Positions 1,908 through 10,460 of a stretch of 10,460 bases of DNA are shown here, piece after piece (the stretch's first letter is position 1; every line of letters starts with the position of its first letter). The stretch covers positions 1-10,460 of the forward strand of contig NZ_LSJI01000172.1 in assembly GCF_001557235.1 (NCBI RefSeq). The letters run 5' to 3'. Source of the stretch: Phenylobacterium sp. CCH9-H3. GTDB taxonomy: Bacteria; Pseudomonadota; Alphaproteobacteria; Caulobacterales; Caulobacteraceae. Made by a program: the position numbers and the translations under genes. The notes beneath the pieces were generated by a model, which ran no database searches, was not told the origin of the DNA, and saw only the letters and a list, made by a program, of their open reading frames with translations.

Positions 1908-2932
1908 TCGAACAGGTCCGGCGTCTGCGGCTGGCCGACGCCCTTGGGCGCCGTCAGGCCCAGGTGGGCATAGGCCTTGGCGCAGGCCATGCGGCCGCGG
2001 GGCGTGCGCTGGATGAAGCCCTGCTGCAGCAGGAAGGGCTCGATCACGTCCTCCACGGCGTCGCGGGCCTCGGCGATGGCGTAGGCCAGGGTCTCAACGC
2101 CGGCCGGCCCGCCGGCGTAGTTCTCGATCAGGGCGCGCAGGTAGCGGCGGTCCAGGGCGTCCAGGCCCATCTCGTCTACGTCCAGCCGCGCCAGGGCCGA
2201 GGCGGCGGCCTTGCGGTCGATCACCGCCGCGCCGTCGGCGGCCGCGAAGTCGCGCACGCGGCGCAGCAGCCGGCCCGCCACCCGGGGCGTGCCCCGGGCG
2301 CGGGCGGCGATCTCCATGGCCCCGTCGGGCGACAGCTGGGTCCCCATCTTGGCGGCCGCGCCCAGCAGCACCTTCTGCAGCTCCTCGTGGGTGTAGAACT
2401 CCAGCCGGATCGGGATCCCGAACCGGTCGCGCAAGGGTGTGGCCAGGAGGCCCGCCCGCGTCGTCGCCGCCACCAGGGTGAAGGGCGCCAGGTCGATGCG
2501 GATCGACCGCGCCGATGGCCCTTCGCCGATCATCAGGTCCAGCACATGGTCCTCCATGGCCGGATAGAGGATCTCCTCGACGTTGGCGGCCAGGCGGTGG
2601 ATCTCGTCGATGAACAGGACGTCGCGCGGTTCCAGGTTGGTCAGGATCGCGGCCAAATCCCCGGCCTTGGCGAGCACCGGCCCGGACGTGGCGCGGAAGT
2701 TCACCCCCAGCTCCCGGGCGACGATCTGGGCGAGGGTGGTCTTGCCCAGGCCCGGCGGGCCGAACAGCAGCACGTGGTCCAGCGCCTCGGCCCGGTTCTT
2801 GGCCGCGTCGATGAAGACGCTGAGGTTGCCCTTGGCCTGTTCCTGCCCGACGAACTCGCCGAGCGTCTGCGGCCGCAGGGCCTTGTCCGTTGGCTCGAAC
2901 GCCTGCGGTTCGCCGGAGACGATGCGGGTCAC
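1904..2932 (-). CDS. ruvB: RuvB, Holliday-junction branch-migration helicase motor
   Basis: An AAA+ ATPase of 342 residues that forms hexameric rings on DNA at a RuvA-bound Holliday junction and drives branch migration during recombinational repair. Visible motifs: Walker A GPPGLGKT at 58-65, Walker B LFIDE at 106-110, sensor-1 ATTRAG at 156-161, the RDRFG stretch at 168-172 containing the trans-acting arginine, and sensor-2 [17 protein letters not shown] at about 214-230. The C-terminal winged helix ends with [16 protein letters not shown] (299-314). The sensor-2 stretch reads VAGRL where many RuvB proteins have IANRL, a conservative-looking variant. Start is GTG at 2930-2932, overlapping the ruvA stop as GTGA. 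Length is full for the family. Confidence 0.98.
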
Positions 2933-3543
2933 CGCCCCAGCTCCTGCAGCGCGGCCTTGATGAGCGCGGGCGGCTCGACGTCCTCGCCCAGGCGGATCGC
3001 GGCGGCCTCGACCACGCGGCGGGCGGCGGGCTCGGCCACGCCCAGGCCCATCAGCGCGGCTACAGCCTCGCCCGACGCGGAGGGTTTCACCGGCTGGCTC
3101 GGCAGGGCCTGGGCGTGGAAGGCCGCGACCGGTCCGTCCGTGATCGGCTTGCCCTTCAGCTCGGTGACGATGCGCAGCGCCAGCTTGGGCCCGACGCCGT
3201 TCGCCCGCGCCACGGCGGCCTTGTCGTCCCGCGCCACGGCCCCCGCCAGTTCGCTCGGCGGCAGCACGTCCAGCACCGCCAGGGCCGCCTTCGGCCCCAC
3301 GCCCTGGATCGTGCGCAACAGCACGAACGCCTGCCGGTCCTCCCGAGCGAGAAAGCCGTAGAGCGTCAGGCCGGTCTGCTCCCCCCAGTGGCTCTCCACG
3401 TGCAGCAGGGTCTCGGCCCCGATCTCGGGCAGGCGCGACAGGGTCCGCGCGCCGCAGCGCACGACATAGCCCACGCCCATCACGTCGATGAGCGCCTCTT
3501 CCTCGCCGACCTCGGCCACGGCGCCGCGCAGTCGGCCGATCAT
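2929..3543 (-). CDS. ruvA: RuvA, Holliday-junction recognition subunit
   Basis: A protein of 204 residues that binds four-way junctions as tetramers and loads RuvB. It begins [20 protein letters not shown], with the OB-fold domain at about 1-64 ending LTLYGF. Two helix-hairpin-helix motifs follow, [14 protein letters not shown] (78-91) and [19 protein letters not shown] (114-132). A flexible linker (about 134-155) and the C-terminal RuvB-binding domain (about 156-204) complete it. At the acidic-pin position (E. coli Glu55-Asp56) this protein has Glu55-Gln56. ATG 3543 is the start, since MIGRLRG is the canonical N-terminus; the frame is open upstream but has no plausible start. No clear ribosome site precedes it. 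A seven-codon mini-ORF (3540-3563) overlaps the start. The marR stop lies 74 bases upstream. Confidence 0.97.
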
Positions 3544-3563
3544 GTGCGAATCGGGTTCGGCAT
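3540..3563 (-). other. Seven-codon mini-ORF overlapping the ruvA start
   Basis: On the minus strand an ATG at 3561-3563 opens MPNPIRT and stops with TGA at 3540-3542, which overlaps the ruvA ATG (3541-3543) as ATGA. ruvA has no evident ribosome site of its own, so reinitiation from this mini-ORF is conceivable. The mini-ORF has only a weak GGA upstream, and such a short overlap can arise by chance. Inference only. Confidence 0.2.
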
Positions 3564-3617
3564 GTGTTCCGCAGGAGTACCGCAGCGCGGACTCCGGGGG
3601 AACAACGGGAAGGGGCC

Positions 3618-4121
3618 TTAGGGACCCTCTTCGGCGCTTGCGCCGGACCTCCCGCGGGGGTGCGGCAGTTCCAGCTGCTCCAGGGCGTGCAGCAGGTCGG
3701 TGAACACCGGCATGGTGCTCTTCAGCTGCCCGAGGTTGTTGCGCGAGATGATCTCCAGCAGGCGGGCGCCCTCGTCGGTGAGCGTCAGGGCCACGCGCCG
3801 CCGGTCGTCCGGCGCCGGCGCCCGGCTGAGCAGGCCCCGCTCCACCAGCCGGTCCACCAGTCCGAGGGCGCTGTGGTTCTTGATCAGCAGCGACGCCGCC
3901 AGCCCGCCGACGCTGAGGGCGCCCGGCCCCGGATGGGCGCGCACGGCCAGCAGCGCCTGATGCTGCTGCGGCGTCAGCCCGACCGCGCGGGCCTCGGCCT
4001 GGCTGAACGCGAGGAACCGGCGCAGGGCCTGGCGAAAGGCGCCGAGGGCCTGATAGTCCGCGCCGGTCAGCTTGCGCCGGGTGGGGCGGCGCGCGGGGGA
4101 CTCGGACGGGTTCGACGCCAT
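3618..4121 (-). CDS. MarR-family winged-helix transcriptional regulator
   Basis: A cytoplasmic DNA-binding regulator of 167 residues with the MarR layout. After a Pro/Arg/Ser-rich N-terminus come a dimerisation helix (about 21-45, [22 protein letters not shown]) and [12 protein letters not shown] (49-60). The helix-turn-helix is [24 protein letters not shown] (about 69-92), and the wing carries [14 protein letters not shown] (105-118). A long C-terminal helix (about 119-152) closes the dimer interface. The inducer and targets cannot be read from the sequence. The ATG at 4119-4121 is chosen because upstream codons lie in hairpin-rich non-coding DNA. It lies 74 bases before ruvA on the same strand, in a place where ruvC would often be expected, and may share its transcript. 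MarR proteins commonly repress their own promoter; see the palindrome at 4449-4461. Confidence 0.88.
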
Positions 4122-4221
4122 CGGGGTGATCTCGGGTACGCGGCCCCGGACGCTCGGGGCCTGATTCGCACGCCTGGAGGATCGGAGAAATCCAGCCGGC
4201 GGACCAGGGGTCCGGGGGGCA

Positions 4222-4275
4222 CGGCGCCGCCGGCACGTCCTGCCGGCGGCGCCGCCCGCGGTGGCCGACCGCGGG
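4222..4275. repeat. Two abutting perfect hairpins (14-bp and 8-bp stems)
   Basis: Bases 4222-4235 (CGGCGCCGCCGGCA) pair perfectly with 4241-4254, leaving loop CGTCC. The very next base begins a second perfect stem, 4255-4262 (CCCGCGGT) with 4268-4275, leaving loop GGCCG. Both have five-base loops and there is no spacer between them. The pairing is read directly from the sequence; any role (RNA structure, protein site, replication or transcription block) is unknown. Confidence 0.75.
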
Positions 4276-4358
4276 GCCCCGACCGGCGCGGCTGCAAGGT
4301 GACCCCAATGCTGCAACCCGCCAGTGTCCTGTCGCACCAGCCCCCGGTGCGGCGATGT

Positions 4359-4402
4359 CGCGCGGCGCCGGAGCCGGGGGGGCAAGAAACCGGCGCCGCG
4401 CG
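4359..4402. repeat. Perfect 13-bp inverted repeat with 18-base loop
   Basis: Bases 4359-4371 (CGCGCGGCGCCGG) are the reverse complement of 4390-4402, separated by 18 bases that include GCAAGAAA. The arms share the core CGGCGCC with the hairpin at 4222-4254, so alternative pairings between the two elements are possible, as in an RNA switch. No T run follows. Function unknown. Confidence 0.7.
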
Positions 4403-4435
4403 GGGGATCGCTGCGGACCCAAGGCACGACTACCC

Positions 4436-4478
4436 CATGCCCGAAAAGATCGTAAGACGATGTATCATAACAACCCTG
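4436..4478. promoter_or_regulatory. AT-rich patch with a 13-bp palindrome, possible promoter/operator for marR or the 4517 ORF
   Basis: In a GC-rich intergenic region this stretch is clearly AT-richer. It holds the inverted repeat ATCGT-aag-ACGAT at 4449-4461. A TATCAT hexamer (4463-4468) resembles a -10 element on the plus strand, but has no good -35. On the minus strand TTGTTA (complement of 4467-4472) resembles a -35, but has no well-placed -10. The patch lies between marR and the plus-strand ORF at 4517, a natural place for a MarR autoregulatory site. The palindrome is seen; the function is inferred. Confidence 0.3.
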
Positions 4479-4516
4479 TGAACCCGGACCTCGCCGGCAA
4501 CGGCTAAGCTGCGGCG

Positions 4517-4705
4517 ATGACGCCGCCCAAGACCCGCCCATCGCCGACGCTTCGAACCGCAGCCGTCCGCGGGTCGCTCCTCGTCGCCGGCGCCCTCGCC
4601 GCCGCCTGGCTCGGGGCGGCTGCGGCCCGGTCGCTCGCGCTGGACGCGGACGACTTCGCGCCCCTCGGCGCGTCGCGGCTCTATGTGTCGGGCGAGCGGA
4701 ACTAG
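4517..4705 (+). CDS. Small single-pass membrane or exported protein, unknown function
   Basis: A 62-residue ORF starting ATG at 4517. A basic N-terminus (residues 1-18, with K5, R7, R13 and R18) leads to one hydrophobic segment at about 20-42 (LLVAGALAAAWLGAAAARSL), then an acidic patch (LDADDF) and a short tail ending YVSGERN. Third codon positions are almost all G or C, as in real genes of this genome, which favours coding. Against it, no clear ribosome site is seen and I do not recognise a family. It sits alone between two hairpin- or promoter-like regions and reads in the direction of otsA, which begins 240 bases later. It could be an inner-membrane miniprotein, or the segment could be a signal peptide with a very short mature part. 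Confidence 0.45.
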   Translation: MTPPKTRPSPTLRTAAVRGSLLVAGALAAAWLGAAAARSLALDADDFAPLGASRLYVSGERN

Positions 4706-4949: not shown

Positions 4950-6358
4950 GCCGCCTGATCGTCGTCTCCAATCGGGTCAGCCCGCCGCAGGACGCCGGCG
5001 TCGCCTCGGCCGGCGGCCTGGCCATGGCGCTGTCGGCCGCCCTCCGCGACGGCCGCGGCGTCTGGTTCGGCTGGAGCGGGAACACCGTCGAGTCCTACAC
5101 CGGCCAGCTCACCGTCCAGCGGGTGGGCGACGTCACCGTGGCCCTGGTCGACCTCGAGGGCCAGGACGTGGACGAGTACTACAACGGCTACGCCAACCGC
5201 ACGCTCTGGCCGCTGTTCCACTACCGCACCGACCTGGCGGAGTACGAGCGCAGCTACCACGAGGGCTATCAGCGGGTGAACGAGCGGTTCGCGCGCGCCC
5301 TGGCGCCCCTGCTGTCGCCGGACGACATCATCTGGGTGCAGGACTACCACCTCATCCCGCTGGCGCAGCAGCTGCGCAAGCTGGGCGTGCGCAACCGGAT
5401 CGGCTTCTTCCTGCACATCCCCTGGCCGTCCCGCCGCCTGTTCCTGACCCTGCCGGGCGGGCGCGACCTGGTCAGCAGCCTGTTCGACTACGACCTGGTC
5501 GGCTTCCAGGCCCAGGACCACCGCGAGGCGTTCAGCGACTACATCGTCCACGAGGCCGGCGGCGCCGCGGCGGGCGAGGACCAGCTGCGCGCGTTCGGCA
5601 AGACCCTGCGCATCGGCGTCTTCCCCATCGGCATCGACGCCGAGGCCTTCGTCGAGGCGGCCCGGCTGCCTCCGGGCGAGGCCCAGTTCGCGCGCATGGA
5701 AAAGAGCAAGGCCGGGCGCAAGATGCTGCTGGGCATCGACCGGCTGGACTATTCCAAGGGGCTGGAGGACCGCTTCCAGGCCTACGAGCGGTTCCTGGGC
5801 GAGCACCCGGAACACCACGATCAGCTCTTCTACCTGCAGATCGCCACCGCCAGCCGCGAGGAGGTGGGGACCTACCAGGACCTGCGCGCCCGCCTCGACG
5901 CCATCTCCGGCCGGATCAACGGCGCCTACGCCGACCTCGACTGGACGCCGCTGCGCTACGTCAGCCGCTCCTACCGCCGCGACGAGCTGGCGGGGGTCTA
6001 CCGCGCCGCCGACGTGGCGCTCGTCACGCCCCTGCGCGACGGGATGAACCTGGTGGCCAAGGAGTTCGTGGCGGCCCAGGACGCGTCCGATCCCGGCGTC
6101 CTGGTCCTCTCCCGCTTCGCCGGCGCCGCCGACCAGCTCAAGGACGCCCTGATCGTCAATCCCTTCAGCCGCGAGGAGATCGGCGACGCCATCCGCGAGG
6201 CCATCGCCATGCCCCTGGCCGAGCGCCGCCGCCGCTGGGAGGCGATGATGTCCATCGTCATGACCGCCGACGTCGGCGCCTGGCGCGACGACTTCGTGGC
6301 CACCCTGGCCCGGGCCGCTCCGGCGGTGGCGCAGGAGCCGGAACTGCGGGTGGTCTAG
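4946..6358 (+). CDS. otsA: Alpha,alpha-trehalose-phosphate synthase (UDP-forming), GT20
   Basis: A cytoplasmic enzyme of 470 residues that joins UDP-glucose and glucose 6-phosphate to trehalose 6-phosphate, the first step of the OtsAB route to trehalose, an osmo- and desiccation protectant. Family landmarks: LIVVSNRV (4-11), GGLA (23-26), FGWSGN (41-46), DEYYNGYAN with Tyr79 and Trp88 (76-88), VQDYHLIPLA (131-140), FFLHIPWPSRR (154-164), GIDRLDYSKGL (263-273) and LRDGMNLVAKEFVA (363-376). Arg10, Tyr79, Trp88, Asp133, Arg266, Lys271, Asp365 and Glu373 line up with E. coli Arg9, Tyr76, Trp85, Asp130, Arg262, Lys267, Asp361 and Glu369. The start is TTG at 4946, which puts SRLIVVSNRV at the family N-terminus; GAGG at 4934-4937 is eight bases upstream. 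No otsB (phosphatase) lies in the window. The TAG stop overlaps the convergent CAP gene stop. Confidence 0.97.
   Translation: MSRLIVVSNRVSPPQDAGVASAGGLAMALSAALRDGRGVWFGWSGNTVESYTGQLTVQRVGDVTVALVDLEGQDVDEYYNGYANRTLWPLFHYRTDLAEYERSYHEGYQRVNERFARALAPLLSPDDIIWVQDYHLIPLAQQLRKLGVRNRIGFFLHIPWPSRRLFLTLPGGRDLVSSLFDYDLVGFQAQDHREAFSDYIVHEAGGAAAGEDQLRAFGKTLRIGVFPIGIDAEAFVEAARLPPGEAQFARMEKSKAGRKMLLGIDRLDYSKGLEDRFQAYERFLGEHPEHHDQLFYLQIATASREEVGTYQDLRARLDAISGRINGAYADLDWTPLRYVSRSYRRDELAGVYRAADVALVTPLRDGMNLVAKEFVAAQDASDPGVLVLSRFAGAADQLKDALIVNPFSREEIGDAIREAIAMPLAERRRRWEAMMSIVMTADVGAWRDDFVATLARAAPAVAQEPELRVV
6355..6358. other. Shared CTAG: overlapping stop codons of convergent genes
   Basis: otsA ends with TAG at 6356-6358 on the plus strand, and the CAP gene ends with TAG at 6355-6357 on the minus strand, both within the self-complementary CTAG. 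There is no intergenic space for terminators, so transcripts from each side must run into the other gene unless stopped by structure or Rho. Confidence 0.9.
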
Positions 6359-7149
6359 GCGGTCAGGAAGATCGGCCCGCCCACCACATCGAAGCCGCCG
6401 GCTTCGCGGCGGCGGATGGCGGTGATCTGCATCACCGGCGCCGCGCCCTCGACCTTGCCGAGCCGGCTGCCCTGCGGCGGCGACAGGCGGGGGCGGTGCT
6501 CGCGGGGGACCGCCTGCAGCGCCCGGGCCACCTGCGGGCCCTCGGCGCGGAAGGGCAAGGGCTCGGGCAGGCTGGCCACCGGCCGCGCGAACAGCCCCAC
6601 CATCCAGACCCGGTCCCGGGCGCGCACCACGCCATAGGCGGCGTGGGTGTGGCTGGGCCGCAGGAGGTTGCGCCAGTGGCCCGGGCTCCTCCGCCACCGC
6701 ATCACCAGGTCCGCCGCGGCGACCGGCGGCCCCGACCCGCGGTGATAGGCGATGTTCTCCGACGGCGATCCGATGGTCGTGCGGCCCAGCAGCCAGAAGC
6801 GGTGGCTGGGATCGAACCCCTCGGGCGACAGGTGCTCCACATAGCCCCGCGCGGCCAGGTCGCCCGCATGGGCGCGCGCCGCCGCGGCTAGCTCCTCGTG
6901 CCAGGCCACAGCCCCGGCGCCCGCCGCCGCCCGCGCCGCATTGGTGGCGCTCAGCGCCGCCCGACCCGCCGCCGCGTCGAACCGATGCCCGCCCGCGTCG
7001 CCGGACCGGGCCTGCAGCCGCGCCTCATAGGCGCTCCAGGCCTCCGCGTCCGAGGCGGGCGGCGCCGCGTCGGTGATCGCCTCGGCCAGCGCCGGCCCGG
7101 CGGCCAGCGCCAGCCCGGCCCCCAGCACGGCGCGCCGGCCAAGCCTCAC
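6355..7149 (-). CDS. Exported CAP/SCP-domain protein (YkwD-like)
   Basis: An exported protein of 264 residues. The N-terminus MRLGRRAVLGAGLALAAGPA, followed by LA and then EA, is a signal peptide; GRRAVLG resembles a twin-arginine motif, so Tat export is possible. The CAP domain spans about 63-187: NAARAAAGAGAVAWHEELAAAA (70-91), GYVEHLSPEGFDPSHRF (102-118) with His106, SENIAYHRG (130-138) with Glu131, and SPGHWRNLLRPSHTHAAYGV (155-174) with His158. These His/Glu residues match the conserved CAP cavity. About 75 residues after it (190-264) are not recognised. Bacterial CAP proteins are found outside the cytoplasm, and their biochemical role is largely unknown. The GTG at 7149 is chosen over the GTG at 7173 because it overlaps the cytochrome stop as GTGA and gives a normal signal peptide. 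It is last in the beta-helix/cytochrome operon. Confidence 0.88.
   Translation of the reverse strand: MRLGRRAVLGAGLALAAGPALAEAITDAAPPASDAEAWSAYEARLQARSGDAGGHRFDAAAGRAALSATNAARAAAGAGAVAWHEELAAAARAHAGDLAARGYVEHLSPEGFDPSHRFWLLGRTTIGSPSENIAYHRGSGPPVAAADLVMRWRRSPGHWRNLLRPSHTHAAYGVVRARDRVWMVGLFARPVASLPEPLPFRAEGPQVARALQAVPREHRPRLSPPQGSRLGKVEGAAPVMQITAIRRREAGGFDVVGGPIFLTA
6391..6413. terminator. Hairpin just past the otsA stop, weak terminator candidate
   Basis: GCCGCCG (6394-6400) pairs with CGGCGGC (6407-6413) around GCTTCG, and GAAGCC (6391-6396) can alternatively pair with GGCTTC (6400-6405). It begins 33 bases after the otsA stop, inside the 3' end of the CAP gene. No T run follows in the otsA direction, so it is at best a partial terminator or 3' stabiliser, and coding constraint could explain it. 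Confidence 0.2.
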
Positions 7150-8201
7150 GAGGCGGGCATGCCGGCGATCCACTGGCGGATCAGGGCCAGCCCCTCCTCA
7201 TGCGTCAGCGAACGGCCCAGCTCCGGCATCATCACCCCCGGCTCGGTGGAAGCCATGCGATAGGCCAGGATCGAGGCCTCCGGATGCCCCGGCTCCACGC
7301 TGACCCGAAGGCCGCCGGATCCCCGCCCCGCCGCCACCGGCGCCTTGCCCACGCCCAGGGCCGGGGCCCGCGTCTCCTCCAGGTTCAGGAACAGGCCCGA
7401 GTTCGAGGCCACCGCCCGCGGGTTGTGGCAATGGGCGCAGTTGGCGTCGAGGTAGGCCCGCGCCCGCGCCGCTGTCGGCTCGGCCGGATCGTCCCACCGC
7501 GCGGTCCTGGGCGCGTCCTGCGGCTTCGGCGCGCCCGAGAGCAGGCCCCGCCGGCTCCAGTGCGCCAGCTGGTTCTCCGCCCCGCCGGCGTAGGCAAAGG
7601 TCCCGTTCAGGTTCCGCGCCTTGGGCCCCACCGGCAGCAGCGTCTTGTCCAGCTGGTGGCACTCCTTGCACTGGTTCTGGTTCGGCACCGCATAGTCCAC
7701 CTGCCGCGCCTGGCCGCGCGCGTCCACGAAGCTCACGTCCAGCCGCGCGCCCGCCCGCTTCAGCACCGCCTCGGTCTGCTCGGCGTTCCACACATAGGCC
7801 AGCGCCACCCACCCCTCGCGCTTGTGGATCAACAGGCGGGTTTCCAGATACCGCACCTTTTCGTCCGGCCGGCGCAGGTCGGCCGGATAGGCGAAGGTCT
7901 TCACCAGCGCCGTCCCCACCGGAAACGCCAGCACCCCCTCGGCCCGATAGGCCGCCTTGGTCCCCGGCGGCAGGTAGAGGAAGCGGTGCTTCTCGGCATA
8001 GTCGCTGAACAGCGGCGTGTTGAGGGCATAGGGCGTCAGCCCGTTCGGCCGCCGGCCTGCCGCATCCGTGAACAGCCGATAGTCCGACAGCTTGGGCGCC
8101 GGCGCCTCGGCCAGCAGGGTCTCCAGCGACACGGCCGCCGGGGCCGGCGCCGCACTCACGCACGCGAGCGCCGCCAGGCTGGCCAGCCAGCGCCGCATCA
8201 T
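7146..8201 (-). CDS. SO2930/HNE_0200-family diheme c-type cytochrome
   Basis: A periplasmic protein of 351 residues with a signal peptide (MMRRWLASLAALACVSAAPA, cleavage near 20-23). Two heme c attachment motifs are visible: CKECH at 178-182 within PNQNQCKECHQLDKTLLPVG, and CAHCH at 255-259 within LDANCAHCHNPRAVASNSG. Met324 or Met325 in EPGVMMPELG, before the C-terminal helix ALIRQWIAGM, is a likely axial ligand of the second heme. The N-terminal 170 residues (LSDYRLFTD, LTPYALNTPLFSDYAEKHRF) are typical of this family and carry no known catalytic motif. From memory of the family models, it pairs recurrently with the parallel beta-helix family encoded just upstream here, with unknown function. 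ATG 8199-8201 overlaps the beta-helix stop (ATGA), and its own stop overlaps the CAP start. Electron transfer is inferred from the hemes; donor, acceptor and substrate are unknown. Confidence 0.9.
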   Translation of the reverse strand: MMRRWLASLAALACVSAAPAPAAVSLETLLAEAPAPKLSDYRLFTDAAGRRPNGLTPYALNTPLFSDYAEKHRFLYLPPGTKAAYRAEGVLAFPVGTALVKTFAYPADLRRPDEKVRYLETRLLIHKREGWVALAYVWNAEQTEAVLKRAGARLDVSFVDARGQARQVDYAVPNQNQCKECHQLDKTLLPVGPKARNLNGTFAYAGGAENQLAHWSRRGLLSGAPKPQDAPRTARWDDPAEPTAARARAYLDANCAHCHNPRAVASNSGLFLNLEETRAPALGVGKAPVAAGRGSGGLRVSVEPGHPEASILAYRMASTEPGVMMPELGRSLTHEEGLALIRQWIAGMPAS

Positions 8202-9409
8202 GCCCCCAGGTCGGCCTGGCGCTTAGGCAGGACCACGGCCGCCGGCTCGGCGATCTGGGCGTCGCCCACGGTGTCGGCCTTCACCGGCTTGGCGGCCATC
8301 AGCGCCCCCGGCGCCGGCAACTGCAGGTTCAGCACCGGCCCGTCCGAGATCCGCACCCGCACCGGATCGCTGGTCCCGGCGAAGCTGGTCACCCCGTCCC
8401 ACATCACCGGCGGCAGCGACCCGCCCATCATCTTGGCCAGGATCTCGCCCCCGGTGAACTTGGGGTCCCACCCGTTCCGGCCGATGCGGTTGTCCCGCAC
8501 CACGATGTCCCGGGGCAGGGGGTTATAGGTCTTGTCGTCGAACTTCTCGGTGTAGCTCACCAGCATCACCGCCGCCGACTGGTTCTCGGCGATCTCGTTG
8601 TCGAAGACGTGGACGTTCTTGTTGGCCATGATCATCACGCCGGTGCCGGTGGGCACGTTGGCGACGATATTGCCCTTGGGCGCGAAGTTCGGCGTGTCGT
8701 TCTGCACCACCTTGTTGCGGAACAGCCGGGTGGAATGGCCCCCCATCTGCGGCAGGTTCGGCAGGTCGAACACCAGGATGCCCCCGGTGTTGCGGGTGGC
8801 GACGTTGTCGAACACGTCGGCGTTCATCGAGTTCTCGATCTCGATCCCGGCCACGTTGAACTCGGCCCGGCTGCGCTTGACCACGATGTTCTTCGACTGG
8901 CCCACATAGATGCCGGCGTCCGAGGCCCCGCGCACCACCACCCTGTCGATCAGCACATTGGTCGAGCTGACGGGATAGACCCCATAGGCGCCGTTGGTCT
9001 CCTTCGGCCCGCCGGTCCACTCCACCCGCACATTGACGAAGCTGATCTGGTCCGAGCCCTTGGACTTCACCCCGTCGCCCTTGGTGTCCTCCACCCCCAG
9101 GTCGCGGACGGTCACCCGGTCCGAAGTGACCAGCAGCCCCTCGCCGGCGCCCTTCTGGCCCTTGAACGACAGCACCGTGGCCTCCGGCCCGGCGCCCTTC
9201 ACCGTCACGTCGTCCACGCCCAGCGACAGCCCGTCCACCAGCTCGTACCGCCCGGCCGCCAGCTGCACCACGTCGCCCGGCTTGGCGTCCAGCAGAGCCG
9301 TCTGGATCCGCTCCTGCGCCTCGGGCCCCGGCGCCACCGACAGCGTCTTGGCCTGGGCGACGGCGCCCAGCGCAGTGGCCGCCAGCAGGGCGGTGGTGAA
9401 CCTGATCAT
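8198..9409 (-). CDS. Exported parallel beta-helix repeat protein, partner of the diheme cytochrome
   Basis: A protein of 403 residues with a Sec signal peptide (MIRFTTALLAATALGAVAQA, then KT). Residues about 32-55 (RIQTALLDAKPGDVVQLAAGRY) are the capping segment typical of pectate-lyase-like beta-helices. Successive short turns follow from about 65 to 310, such as DDVTVKGAG, DRVTVRDLGVED, TNVLIDRVVVRG, SDAGIYVGQSKNIVVKRS, NVAGIEIENSMNADVFDN, GVMIMANKNVHVFDNEI and RDIVVRDNRIG. The last 90 residues leave the repeat pattern. Beta-helices of this type often bind or cleave polysaccharides, but I could not assign a catalytic site. ATG 9409 is chosen: GAGGG (complement of 9416-9420) is six bases upstream and the signal peptide begins there; a TTG further out adds a basic extension. 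The stop overlaps the cytochrome start. Confidence 0.9.
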   Translation of the reverse strand: MIRFTTALLAATALGAVAQAKTLSVAPGPEAQERIQTALLDAKPGDVVQLAAGRYELVDGLSLGVDDVTVKGAGPEATVLSFKGQKGAGEGLLVTSDRVTVRDLGVEDTKGDGVKSKGSDQISFVNVRVEWTGGPKETNGAYGVYPVSSTNVLIDRVVVRGASDAGIYVGQSKNIVVKRSRAEFNVAGIEIENSMNADVFDNVATRNTGGILVFDLPNLPQMGGHSTRLFRNKVVQNDTPNFAPKGNIVANVPTGTGVMIMANKNVHVFDNEIAENQSAAVMLVSYTEKFDDKTYNPLPRDIVVRDNRIGRNGWDPKFTGGEILAKMMGGSLPPVMWDGVTSFAGTSDPVRVRISDGPVLNLQLPAPGALMAAKPVKADTVGDAQIAEPAAVVLPKRQADLGA

Positions 9410-9492
9410 GTCGTTCCCTCGGATGTCTGCCCGGCATCGTGACGCGCCGTTCAACTTCGAAGGTGGCTCCGATGGGGGGCGGGACGCAAGGG
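9410..9492 (-). other. Upstream gap of the beta-helix operon
   Basis: These 83 bases between the accessory cassette and the beta-helix gene hold its ribosome site (GAGGG, complement of 9416-9420). A TTGAAC (complement of 9449-9454) resembles a -35, but no matching -10 is found 16-18 bases away. I see no terminator for the cassette. The composition changes from accessory-like to genome-like across this gap. Confidence 0.4.
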
Positions 9493-9708
9493 CTAGCCTT
9501 CCGGATCGTCGCTGTAGGGCTGGAAGATCGGGCCGATCGGCAGATCAGTGACCAGGGATGGGAGCATGCCATTCGTGACCTGGCTGCTCGACACATACTC
9601 CTTGATCCGGATCAGTCGAGCCTTGGCGGATCGAAGATGAAGTCCATCCGCTTTCCGCTCGATCTCTCCCACGGGGCGGAACGTCGTCCCGTTGGGGCTG
9701 GCTTGCAA
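9493..9708 (-). CDS. Small ORF of unknown function, in frame after the amber stop of the 154-residue gene
   Basis: A 71-codon ORF with the possible start TTG at 9706-9708, encoding a soluble protein that includes GTTFRPVGEIERKADGLHL and later LPSLVTDLPIGPIFQPYSDD. AAGGG (complement of 9717-9721) lies eight bases upstream of the TTG. The previous gene's TAG (9712-9714) and this ORF are in the same frame with only one codon, CCC, between them. It could be a separate coupled gene, a readthrough extension, or the tail of a longer gene split by a nonsense mutation. About three quarters of its third codon positions are G or C, which fits coding DNA of this region. NGTTFRPVGEIER reads like the N-terminus of an independent small protein, which I slightly favour. 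I do not recognise the family. Confidence 0.45.
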   Translation of the reverse strand: MQASPNGTTFRPVGEIERKADGLHLRSAKARLIRIKEYVSSSQVTNGMLPSLVTDLPIGPIFQPYSDDPEG

Positions 9709-9722
9709 GGGCTAGGCCCTTG
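9706..9722. repeat. Palindrome over the stop/start junction of the two accessory ORFs
   Basis: CAAGGGC (9706-9712) and GCCCTTG (9716-9722) pair perfectly around TAG. In the minus-strand RNA the AAGGG ribosome site is in one arm and the TTG start in the other, with the upstream stop codon spanning the centre. Folding would hide the start until a ribosome translating the upstream gene opens it. The structure is seen; the coupling is inferred. Confidence 0.45.
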
Positions 9723-10176
9723 TGACCTCTCGGACCTTTCGCTCAAACGCCCGCTCGATGCGCGCCGCATCCTTCGGGAGCGTCGGCCTCATGTCACTGC
9801 GATAGATCATCCCGTCGAATTGGAGCCCATTGATGCTGCAGTCCTTAAGCGTGAACTCACCCCGCACGCCCGGGGGCACACCTATGGCGCCCGAAATCGC
9901 TTGGAACAGCGGATCACTGGGACTCCCTAGATGAACGTCCTCGACCGTCATCTCCTCGGGCAGGTCCAATCGCTCAAAGGCGTCGACGAGAAGCTTGTAG
10001 GTCTTGCGGCGGCCAATGGAGTCCACCAGCGATGTGACGAGGTAATAGCGCCAGTCGCCTAGGGCGTGGCTATAAATCCACATCGCGCCCTGCGCGCTCA
10101 TGTTGAGCGCGTCAGTGGCGTCCAGCAATTCGGCTCCCGCTCTGATCAGAGCGCGTGATAGAGGCTGTCCAGCCAT
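9712..10176 (-). CDS. Conserved-looking accessory protein, function unknown
   Basis: A soluble protein of 154 residues with no signal peptide or membrane segment. The N-terminal third is helical and rich in alanine (RALIRAGAELLDATDALNMS). A strand-like core follows, GAMWIYSHALGDWRYYLVTS (30-49), then LVDSIGRRKTYKLLVDAFERL (50-70) and VEDVHLGSPSDPLFQAI (78-94). The later part, GEFTLKDCSINGLQFDGMIYRSD (106-128), ends in a basic, charged helix (135-154). I do not recognise a family. The ATG at 10176 is chosen over the upstream GTG at 10203: GGAG (complement of 10184-10187) is seven bases upstream, and the shorter overlap with the preceding gene (31 bases) is more usual. Codon use (CTA, TCA, AGG) and lower GC suggest acquired DNA. 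It reads in an apparent operon with the partial gene upstream. Confidence 0.75.
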   Translation of the reverse strand: MAGQPLSRALIRAGAELLDATDALNMSAQGAMWIYSHALGDWRYYLVTSLVDSIGRRKTYKLLVDAFERLDLPEEMTVEDVHLGSPSDPLFQAISGAIGVPPGVRGEFTLKDCSINGLQFDGMIYRSDMRPTLPKDAARIERAFERKVREVTRA

Positions 10177-10460
10177 TTCATCACTCCGTCCTGATGGTGG
10201 CACACGGCAGTAATCAGGTCATTAACCTCTTGCTGGGGCTTCTTGTTGCCGGGGAACCTAGCGTTGCTGTCCCAGTCTCTCGCGGTCAGCCAGTTTGCGT
10301 ACAAGCCCTTCTGTTTTACATCGCATTGGACGTTCGCCGCCGCGGCGATCAGGCGGAGGTCGTGCCAATTCGCGCCCTTTTGTTCGTCTGGCCACTCTGA
10401 AAGATTCTGACGTGACCCCCGTTTCTCATCCAGCCATAACGAGAGTCCTGGTTTGATCTG
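10146..10460 (-). CDS. C-terminal part of an accessory protein, possibly HEPN-like (cut by window edge)
   Basis: An uninterrupted frame enters from the right edge and stops with TGA at 10146-10148, giving the last 104 residues of a protein whose start is outside the window. It looks alpha-helical and soluble: NWHDLRLIAAAANVQ (31-45), then LYANWLTARDWDSNARFPG (53-71) and EVNDLITAVCHHQDGVMKWL (78-97). The order HDL..L, a helix ending in an S/N-A-R-F/Y-P-like stretch, and a last helix ending V..WL resembles the second half of HEPN domains found in toxin-antitoxin and abortive-infection genes. This is pattern recognition only, and the usual R-x4-6-H nuclease motif is not seen in this part. TTA and AGA codons and lower GC set it apart from the core genes. 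Its end overlaps the 154-residue gene by 31 bases. Confidence 0.7.
   Translation of the reverse strand, partial: QIKPGLSLWLDEKRGSRQNLSEWPDEQKGANWHDLRLIAAAANVQCDVKQKGLYANWLTARDWDSNARFPGNKKPQQEVNDLITAVCHHQDGVMKWLDSLYHAL

What the first reader, a model, noticed from the sequence alone, without database searches (positions are those of the whole stretch)
6355..9409. Three-gene secreted operon: beta-helix, diheme cytochrome, CAP protein, of unknown function
Three exported proteins are encoded with four-base overlaps at both junctions (ATGA at 8198-8201, GTGA at 7146-7149), so they are almost certainly made together. The first two match, by their visible features, the parallel beta-helix family (TIGR03805-like) and the HNE_0200/SO2930 diheme cytochrome family (TIGR03806-like), which I recall as a recurring pair without known function. 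A substrate-binding-type beta-helix plus a two-heme electron carrier suggests oxidation or reduction of something bound outside the cytoplasm. The CAP protein as a third, coupled member is less expected and may be a lineage-specific part of the system.
Basis: partly seen in the sequence, partly recalled or inferred. Interest (0 to 1): 0.7.

Follow-up and report, generated by a model that had tools for sequence, protein, structure and literature searches.

The report
Beta-helix plus P460-like diheme cytochrome pair
Three exported proteins are encoded together; two of them form a widespread and often fused pair whose heme protein looks like an unrecognised distant relative of the cytochrome P460 enzymes of the nitrogen cycle, while the third is a local, optional addition.

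The parts
8198..9409 (-). BH: exported right-handed parallel beta-helix protein (403 aa), TIGR03805; AlgE-epimerase fold without the epimerase's catalytic Asp and His
7146..8201 (-). CYT: exported diheme c-type cytochrome (351 aa), TIGR03806 / SO2930 family
   Evidence: (417.0 bits), AF2 pLDDT 95.1
7557..8114 (-). CYT residues 30-215: cytochrome P460 / c'-beta-like domain carrying heme 1 (limits approximate)
   Evidence: (top 16 rows all P460/c'-beta)
7899..7901 (-). CYT Lys101, aligned with the P460 heme-crosslinking lysine (NsP460 Lys106)
   Evidence: 72 of 72; 239 of 240 long relatives listed; K106 located by the K106L entry 6w6n
7842..7844 (-). CYT Glu120, invariant carboxylate, candidate distal-pocket residue
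   Evidence: 72 of 72, 240 of 240; Thr in the divergent GSDH fusion L141
7836..7838 (-). CYT Arg122, candidate distal-pocket residue
   Evidence: 72 of 72, 240 of 240; Ser in the divergent GSDH fusions L141 and L142
7656..7670 (-). heme 1 motif CKECH (CYT residues 178-182)
   Evidence: Cys, Cys and His invariant
7425..7439 (-). heme 2 motif CAHCH (CYT residues 255-259), class-I-type cytochrome c domain
   Evidence: Cys, Cys and His invariant; weak PF00034/PF13442 hits
7227..7229 (-). CYT Met325, probable sixth ligand of heme 2
   Evidence: 72 of 72
8198..8201 (-). ATGA overlap of BH stop and CYT start
   Evidence: sequence
6355..7149 (-). CAP: exported CAP/SCP-domain protein (264 aa, GTG start); lineage-specific, optional
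   Evidence: PF00188 63.8 bits; distribution
7146..7149 (-). GTGA overlap of CYT stop and CAP start
   Evidence: sequence
9416..9420 (-). likely ribosome-binding site of BH (GAGGG)
   Evidence: sequence

Best explanation
BH and CYT are two halves of one exported redox module. CYT is a two-domain heme protein. Its N-terminal half is a cytochrome P460/c'-beta-like beta-sandwich whose c-type heme (His182 ligand, no conserved distal protein ligand) is the reactive site, with an invariant charged set Lys71, Arg73, Lys101, Glu120 and Arg122 that probably lines the pocket, and Lys101 possibly cross-linked to the porphyrin as in cytochrome P460. Its C-terminal half is a His/Met class-I-type cytochrome c that passes the electrons of that reaction to or from the respiratory chain. 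BH is an alginate-epimerase-fold beta-helix without the epimerase's catalytic Asp and His; it most likely positions the heme protein on a polysaccharide or another long ligand. In other bacteria the same CYT domain is fused either to BH or to a PQQ sugar-dehydrogenase propeller, so its partner is exchangeable. I expect heme 1 to carry out redox chemistry on a small molecule (hydroxylamine, nitric oxide or peroxide). Shown by computation: pairing, fusions, partner exchange, conservation. Supported: P460-like fold and the lysine equivalence. Inferred: pocket, cross-link, substrate, direction of electron flow, glycan binding. The CAP protein is a lineage-specific add-on and not needed.
Confidence: 0.6

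Rival explanations
1. CYT is only an electron conduit: both hemes are low-spin, and it accepts electrons from a sugar oxidised by the GSDH partner or from something bound by BH. This would be a bacterial analogue of the heme domain of fungal PQQ pyranose dehydrogenases (analogy recalled).
For: CYT lies behind a PQQ sugar dehydrogenase domain in one chain in 4 of 40 loci and PF07995 is in each of the best 120 of 1120 relatives listed; class-I-type C-terminal domain; SO_2931, numbered next to the family's namesake SO_2930, is counted among the outer-membrane cytochromes of S. oneidensis (PMC12175506 passage).
Against: Heme 1 has no conserved distal His/Met and its domain resembles ligand-binding heme proteins; the invariant charged set is more than a conduit needs.
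Confidence: 0.2
2. The N-terminal domain works like cytochrome c'-beta: a gas-binding or NO-scavenging heme without a lysine cross-link, with Lys101 only structural.
Against: c'-beta proteins have Met or Phe at the cross-link position and mainly hydrophobic pockets (PMC11928373); here it is Lys in 72 of 72, with Glu and Arg invariant further along.
Confidence: 0.15
3. BH is itself an active polysaccharide lyase, hydrolase or epimerase, and CYT oxidises its product.
For: Best structural neighbours are carbohydrate-active (AlgE4, AlgE6, an alginate epimerase/lyase, RbmB, polygalacturonases). Invariant polar and aromatic residues Trp131, Tyr142, Tyr145, Asp164, Tyr168, Gln171, Glu190, Glu192 could form an active groove.
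Against: The AlgE catalytic Asp152 and His154 fall on Tyr and Val/Gly. I noticed no recurrent carbohydrate-active neighbour gene in what I read, but did not search for one systematically.
Confidence: 0.15
4. CAP is a true third subunit of the system in this lineage.
For: CAP follows CYT in 14 distinct rows, with an estimated gap of zero in 7, and the three-gene block lies in two different settings: beside otsA in the window and L031, before an OYE-type gene in others.
Against: CAP is missing from 9 of 23 rows of the same clade; 10 genus genomes have CAP without CYT; L159 keeps CAP beside the adenosine deaminase gene with no pair in the locus.
Confidence: 0.12

Closest known systems
TIGR03806 / SO2930-HNE_0200 family diheme c-type cytochromes
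   Same: Full-length match over cut-off (417.0 against 313.3 bits)
   Different: A normal member; a P460-like N-terminal domain is not described for the family in anything I found (searches, open-licence PMC only)
TIGR03805 parallel beta-helix family
   Same: Full-length match over cut-off (416.9 against 141.5 bits); partner of TIGR03806
   Different: None found
Cytochrome P460 (NeP460, McP460, NsP460; PF16694)
   Same: Fold, position of the CXXCH motif after the beta-sheet, (F)PxGTxxxK motif with the lysine at the cross-link position, no conserved distal His/Met
   Different: Only about 8-12% identity in structural alignment; below the Pfam cut-off; longer stretch before the heme motif; joined to a class-I-type cytochrome c; partner BH or GSDH; distal carboxylate not assignable
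Cytochrome c'-beta
   Different: The three c'-beta proteins in PMC11928373 Table 2 lack the lysine; here it is invariant
AlgE mannuronan C-5 epimerase A-modules
   Different: Catalytic Asp152/His154 not present
NosD periplasmic copper protein
   Different: TIGR04247 34.6 bits against a cut-off of 300; no nosF/nosY/nosZ seen among the neighbours read
S. oneidensis SO_2930/SO_2931 outer-membrane cytochromes
   Same: SO_2930 is the family namesake; L111, whose fusion is 96% identical in its CYT part to a Shewanella protein, carries a BH-CYT fusion followed by a second CYT
   Different: Single-chain fusion with a lipoprotein-like start there, two chains here; that SO_2931 equals the second CYT is inferred from gene numbers

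Membership tests
TIGR03806 (SO2930 family) | NCBIfam curated cut-off 313.3 bits | tested here: met
   417.0 bits over profile 2-314/314
TIGR03806 (SO2930 family) | two CXXCH motifs | tested here: met
   residues 178-182 and 255-259; Cys/Cys/His invariant in 72 of 72
TIGR03805 (beta_helix_1) | NCBIfam curated cut-off 141.5 bits | tested here: met
   416.9 bits over 1-314/314
CAP superfamily (PF00188) | Pfam gathering score 21.1 bits | tested here: met
   63.8 bits
Cytochrome P460 (PF16694) | Pfam gathering score 27 bits | tested here: not met
   window protein 16.0 bits; 40 of 72 members match at E<=1, best 2.2e-4. Therefore not filed as a member of PF16694, only as a distant relative
Cytochrome P460/c'-beta superfamily | beta-sandwich fold with c-heme | tested here: inconclusive
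Cytochrome P460 | lysine at the heme-crosslink position | tested here: met
   67 of 67 rows that aligned there, of 72; position fixed by the K106L entry
Cytochrome P460 | covalent Lys-porphyrin bond | not testable with these tools
   needs mass spectrometry, spectroscopy or a structure
Cytochrome P460 (NH2OH-oxidising) | distal carboxylate (Glu96/Asp102) | tested here: inconclusive
   Glu120 and Arg122 both invariant on that strand; register uncertain
AlgE mannuronan C-5 epimerase | catalytic Tyr149, Asp152, His154, Asp178 (residues as in PMC7385640) | tested here: not met
   HMM alignment (a weak stretch, -1.0 bits) puts Tyr168 at Asp152 and Val169/Gly170 at His154; Asp178 was not examined
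NosD (TIGR04247) | curated cut-off 300 bits | tested here: not met
   34.6 bits

The most novel reading that the evidence does not exclude
TIGR03806 proteins are a large, overlooked branch of P460-type heme enzymes, with a lysine-crosslinked heme wired to a built-in cytochrome c and docked on an exchangeable extracellular partner (an epimerase-fold beta-helix or a PQQ sugar dehydrogenase). This would put P460 chemistry in ordinary heterotrophs of soil and sea, outside ammonia and methane oxidisers and tied to extracellular carbohydrate.
Probability: 0.35. Interest if true: 0.85.

Novelty: new variant of a known kind. Interest (0 to 1): 0.6.

Why it matters
A pair of gene families without known function, found in about two thirds of the sampled genomes of this order (TIGR03806 over cut-off in 131 of 200) and scattered through the Pseudomonadota (37 of 398), gets a testable active site. 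If the heme is of P460 type, enzymes best known from ammonia and methane oxidisers have relatives in common heterotrophs, with possible bearing on NO, hydroxylamine and N2O turnover or on a new heme chemistry. The exchange of the beta-helix for a PQQ sugar dehydrogenase is also a direct experimental handle on what the cytochrome accepts or donates.

Tried and rejected
CAP as a fixed third part: rejected by its distribution. NosD-like copper loading: rejected by score. Active AlgE-type epimerase: rejected by residues, though the stretch of that alignment is weak; in the other register I considered by eye (AYGVYPV, residues 141-147) the Asp position is also Tyr. TonB-dependent receptor as a conserved neighbour: suggestive only (6 of 157 against 2 of 173, p=0.16; 9 against 3 with a better profile, p=0.075; a receptor within two genes in 8 of 47 loci). 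A purine or nucleoside theme (adenosine deaminase upstream in Phenylobacterium, a purine phosphorylase-like gene downstream in Sphingomonas, names read by eye) was not seen in the other neighbours I looked at. Hydrazine synthase alpha, which also joins a propeller with two hemes, was considered from PMC12758564 (passages); it was not among the 10 solved-structure matches listed, which does not exclude it. Foldseek alone found nothing significant for CYT. A single-sequence search of BH against solved structures found nothing. Hits of phage and defence libraries to the ORFs upstream of BH were weak or none. Papers: SO_2931 is named in PMC10986466, PMC5955497 and PMC12175506, and SO_2930 in a table of PMC4837345 (passages only); no passage I saw tests its function. 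The ORF caller used for neighbourhoods was home-made and misses or over-extends some genes in GC-rich DNA (CYT of L055 and CAP of L160 were not called); pairing was therefore counted by tblastn, without a check of strand.

Full report
What is there. The window is from a Phenylobacterium-like bacterium: the nearest held genome shares 31% of sampled 31-letter words, and the closest locus, MAG RIFCSPHIGHO2_01_FULL_69_31 (L031), has 98, 94 and 91% identical BH, CYT and CAP. On the minus strand lie BH (8198-9409), CYT (7146-8201) and CAP (6355-7149), joined by ATGA and GTGA overlaps. NCBIfam and Pfam place them in TIGR03805, TIGR03806 and PF00188, all well over the curated cut-offs. The stop ends of CAP and of otsA, on the other strand, overlap by four bases.

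The pair. With several BH and CYT queries, tblastn finds BH within 1500 bases of CYT, or in one chain with it, in 108 of the first 110 loci; L023 begins 56 bases before CYT, and L055 has CYT and CAP without BH. These 110 were gathered by similarity to CYT and include duplicates. In 40 further loci chosen for diversity (one search hits and a few), BH is next to or fused with CYT in 36. The other four (L139-L142) carry CYT inside very long proteins (1196 to 2369 aa), behind a GSDH domain (PF07995), with repeats, CBM26, PKD, F5/8, ThuA or DUF1592-type domains in one or other of them. Single-chain BH-CYT proteins occur in L111-L113 and L136-L138; for L111, L136, L137 and L138 both NCBIfam models were found in one chain. 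A database search with the CYT part of L111 lists 120 of 661 relatives, 106 of them with PF13229 and some named from Shewanella, Ferrimonas, Endozoicomonas and Halioglobus. The same search with the CYT part of L139 lists 120 of 1120, each with PF07995 (only the 7991 candidates sharing most words were scored). So CYT is found with one of two partners, and BH and CYT most probably touch.

CAP. In a sample of 299 genomes of the family, 89 have CYT and 99 have a CAP match, a good part of them weak. Within the genus, 51 genomes have CYT and 27 have a strong CAP match (E below 1e-40; one more is weak). Seventeen have both: 12 side by side on one contig; 2 cut by a contig end, with the start of CAP next to CYT (G697, G797); 1 unresolved (G673: if it is the record of L036, as its numbers suggest, there is no CAP match in 472 bases behind CYT); and 2 far apart (G701, G824). 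Ten have CAP without CYT. In a tree of 58 CYT rows, CAP neighbours occur in 14 of 23 rows of one clade (support 97/91) and in 0 of 35 other rows, needing six changes, which fits one gain and several losses. In the loci of this clade that keep the common setting, the order is adenosine deaminase - BH - CYT - (CAP) - OYE-type oxidoreductase (the first and last names read from sequence). CAP is thus a recurrent but dispensable neighbour.

Active site. The shared motif is FPxGTxxxK. In the solved NsP460 variants the K of GTVIVKEL is the residue replaced in the K106L entry, and Lys106 is the heme-crosslinking lysine, while the c'-beta proteins have Met or Phe there (PMC11928373 Table 2). Lys101 of CYT sits at that position in 67 of the 67 rows that aligned there, of 72, at a permissive threshold. 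It is Lys in 72 of 72 rows of the alignment (that alignment holds one GSDH fusion, L140), in 239 of 240 listed long relatives and in all ten sequences of a set with the four GSDH fusions. Lys71, Arg73, Glu120 and Arg122 are invariant in the same 72 and 240; in the divergent fusions L141 and L142 only Glu120 of L142 is kept. No His or Met column of the N-terminal domain exceeds 29 of 72 except the heme's own His182, whereas heme 2 has His259 and Met325 in 72 of 72. I infer an open, reactive heme 1 and an electron-transfer heme 2. Whether the P460 distal carboxylate corresponds to Glu120, or is replaced by Arg122, cannot be decided without coordinates.

How it works, most likely. Exported BH and CYT form a complex. 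BH holds it on a glycan or similar ligand; heme 1 of CYT reacts with a small oxidisable or reducible molecule, and heme 2 exchanges the electrons with a periplasmic or outer-membrane carrier. In other lineages a PQQ sugar dehydrogenase takes BH's place. Pairing, fusion, exchange and conservation are computed results; P460-like fold and lysine equivalence are supported but not proven; cross-link, substrate and direction are inference.

Known and new. Both families are in NCBIfam; that their pairing was already noted there is recalled. I found no paper that names TIGR03806 or links it to P460 in the searches (open-licence PMC only). SO_2931, numbered next to the namesake SO_2930, is listed among the outer-membrane cytochromes of S. 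oneidensis (PMC12175506 and PMC10986466 passages). The P460-like domain, the lysine, the two-partner pattern and the limits of CAP are what this analysis adds.

Noticed in passing
window 9493-10460: Two or three minus-strand ORFs upstream of BH without Pfam, NCBIfam or PADLOC matches (weak PHROG hits, E 0.0025 and 0.0005), lower GC (0.61 at 9501-10000), without counterparts among the ORFs called in the close relative L031: perhaps a small mobile insertion.
   Followed up: partly
window 6355-6358: CAP and otsA are convergent and overlap by four bases at their stop ends.
   Followed up: no
L159 (G779): Adenosine deaminase gene next to CAP with no BH or CYT found in the 11.5 kb locus and no CYT in the genome search: the pair seems lost while CAP stayed.
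   Followed up: partly
L055 / L170: CYT and CAP present without any BH match in the locus, a rare break of the pair.
   Followed up: no
L111 6623-10566: BH-CYT fusion followed by a second CYT paralogue, probably the SO_2930/SO_2931 arrangement of Shewanella.
   Followed up: partly
L140 7383-13499, L141 6720-13193, L142 6380-13489: Proteins over 2000 aa that join GSDH and CYT with starch-binding, PKD, F5/8, ThuA or DUF1587/1592/1588/1585 domains.
   Followed up: partly
Pseudoalteromonas plasmid NZ_CP013139.1 41893-42801: A CYT relative annotated only as 'starch-binding protein', possibly one of the GSDH-type fusions.
   Followed up: no
window 2890-4541: Overlapping long ORFs on both strands in GC-rich DNA; the probable gene at 3618-4106 is a MarR-type regulator.
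   Followed up: no
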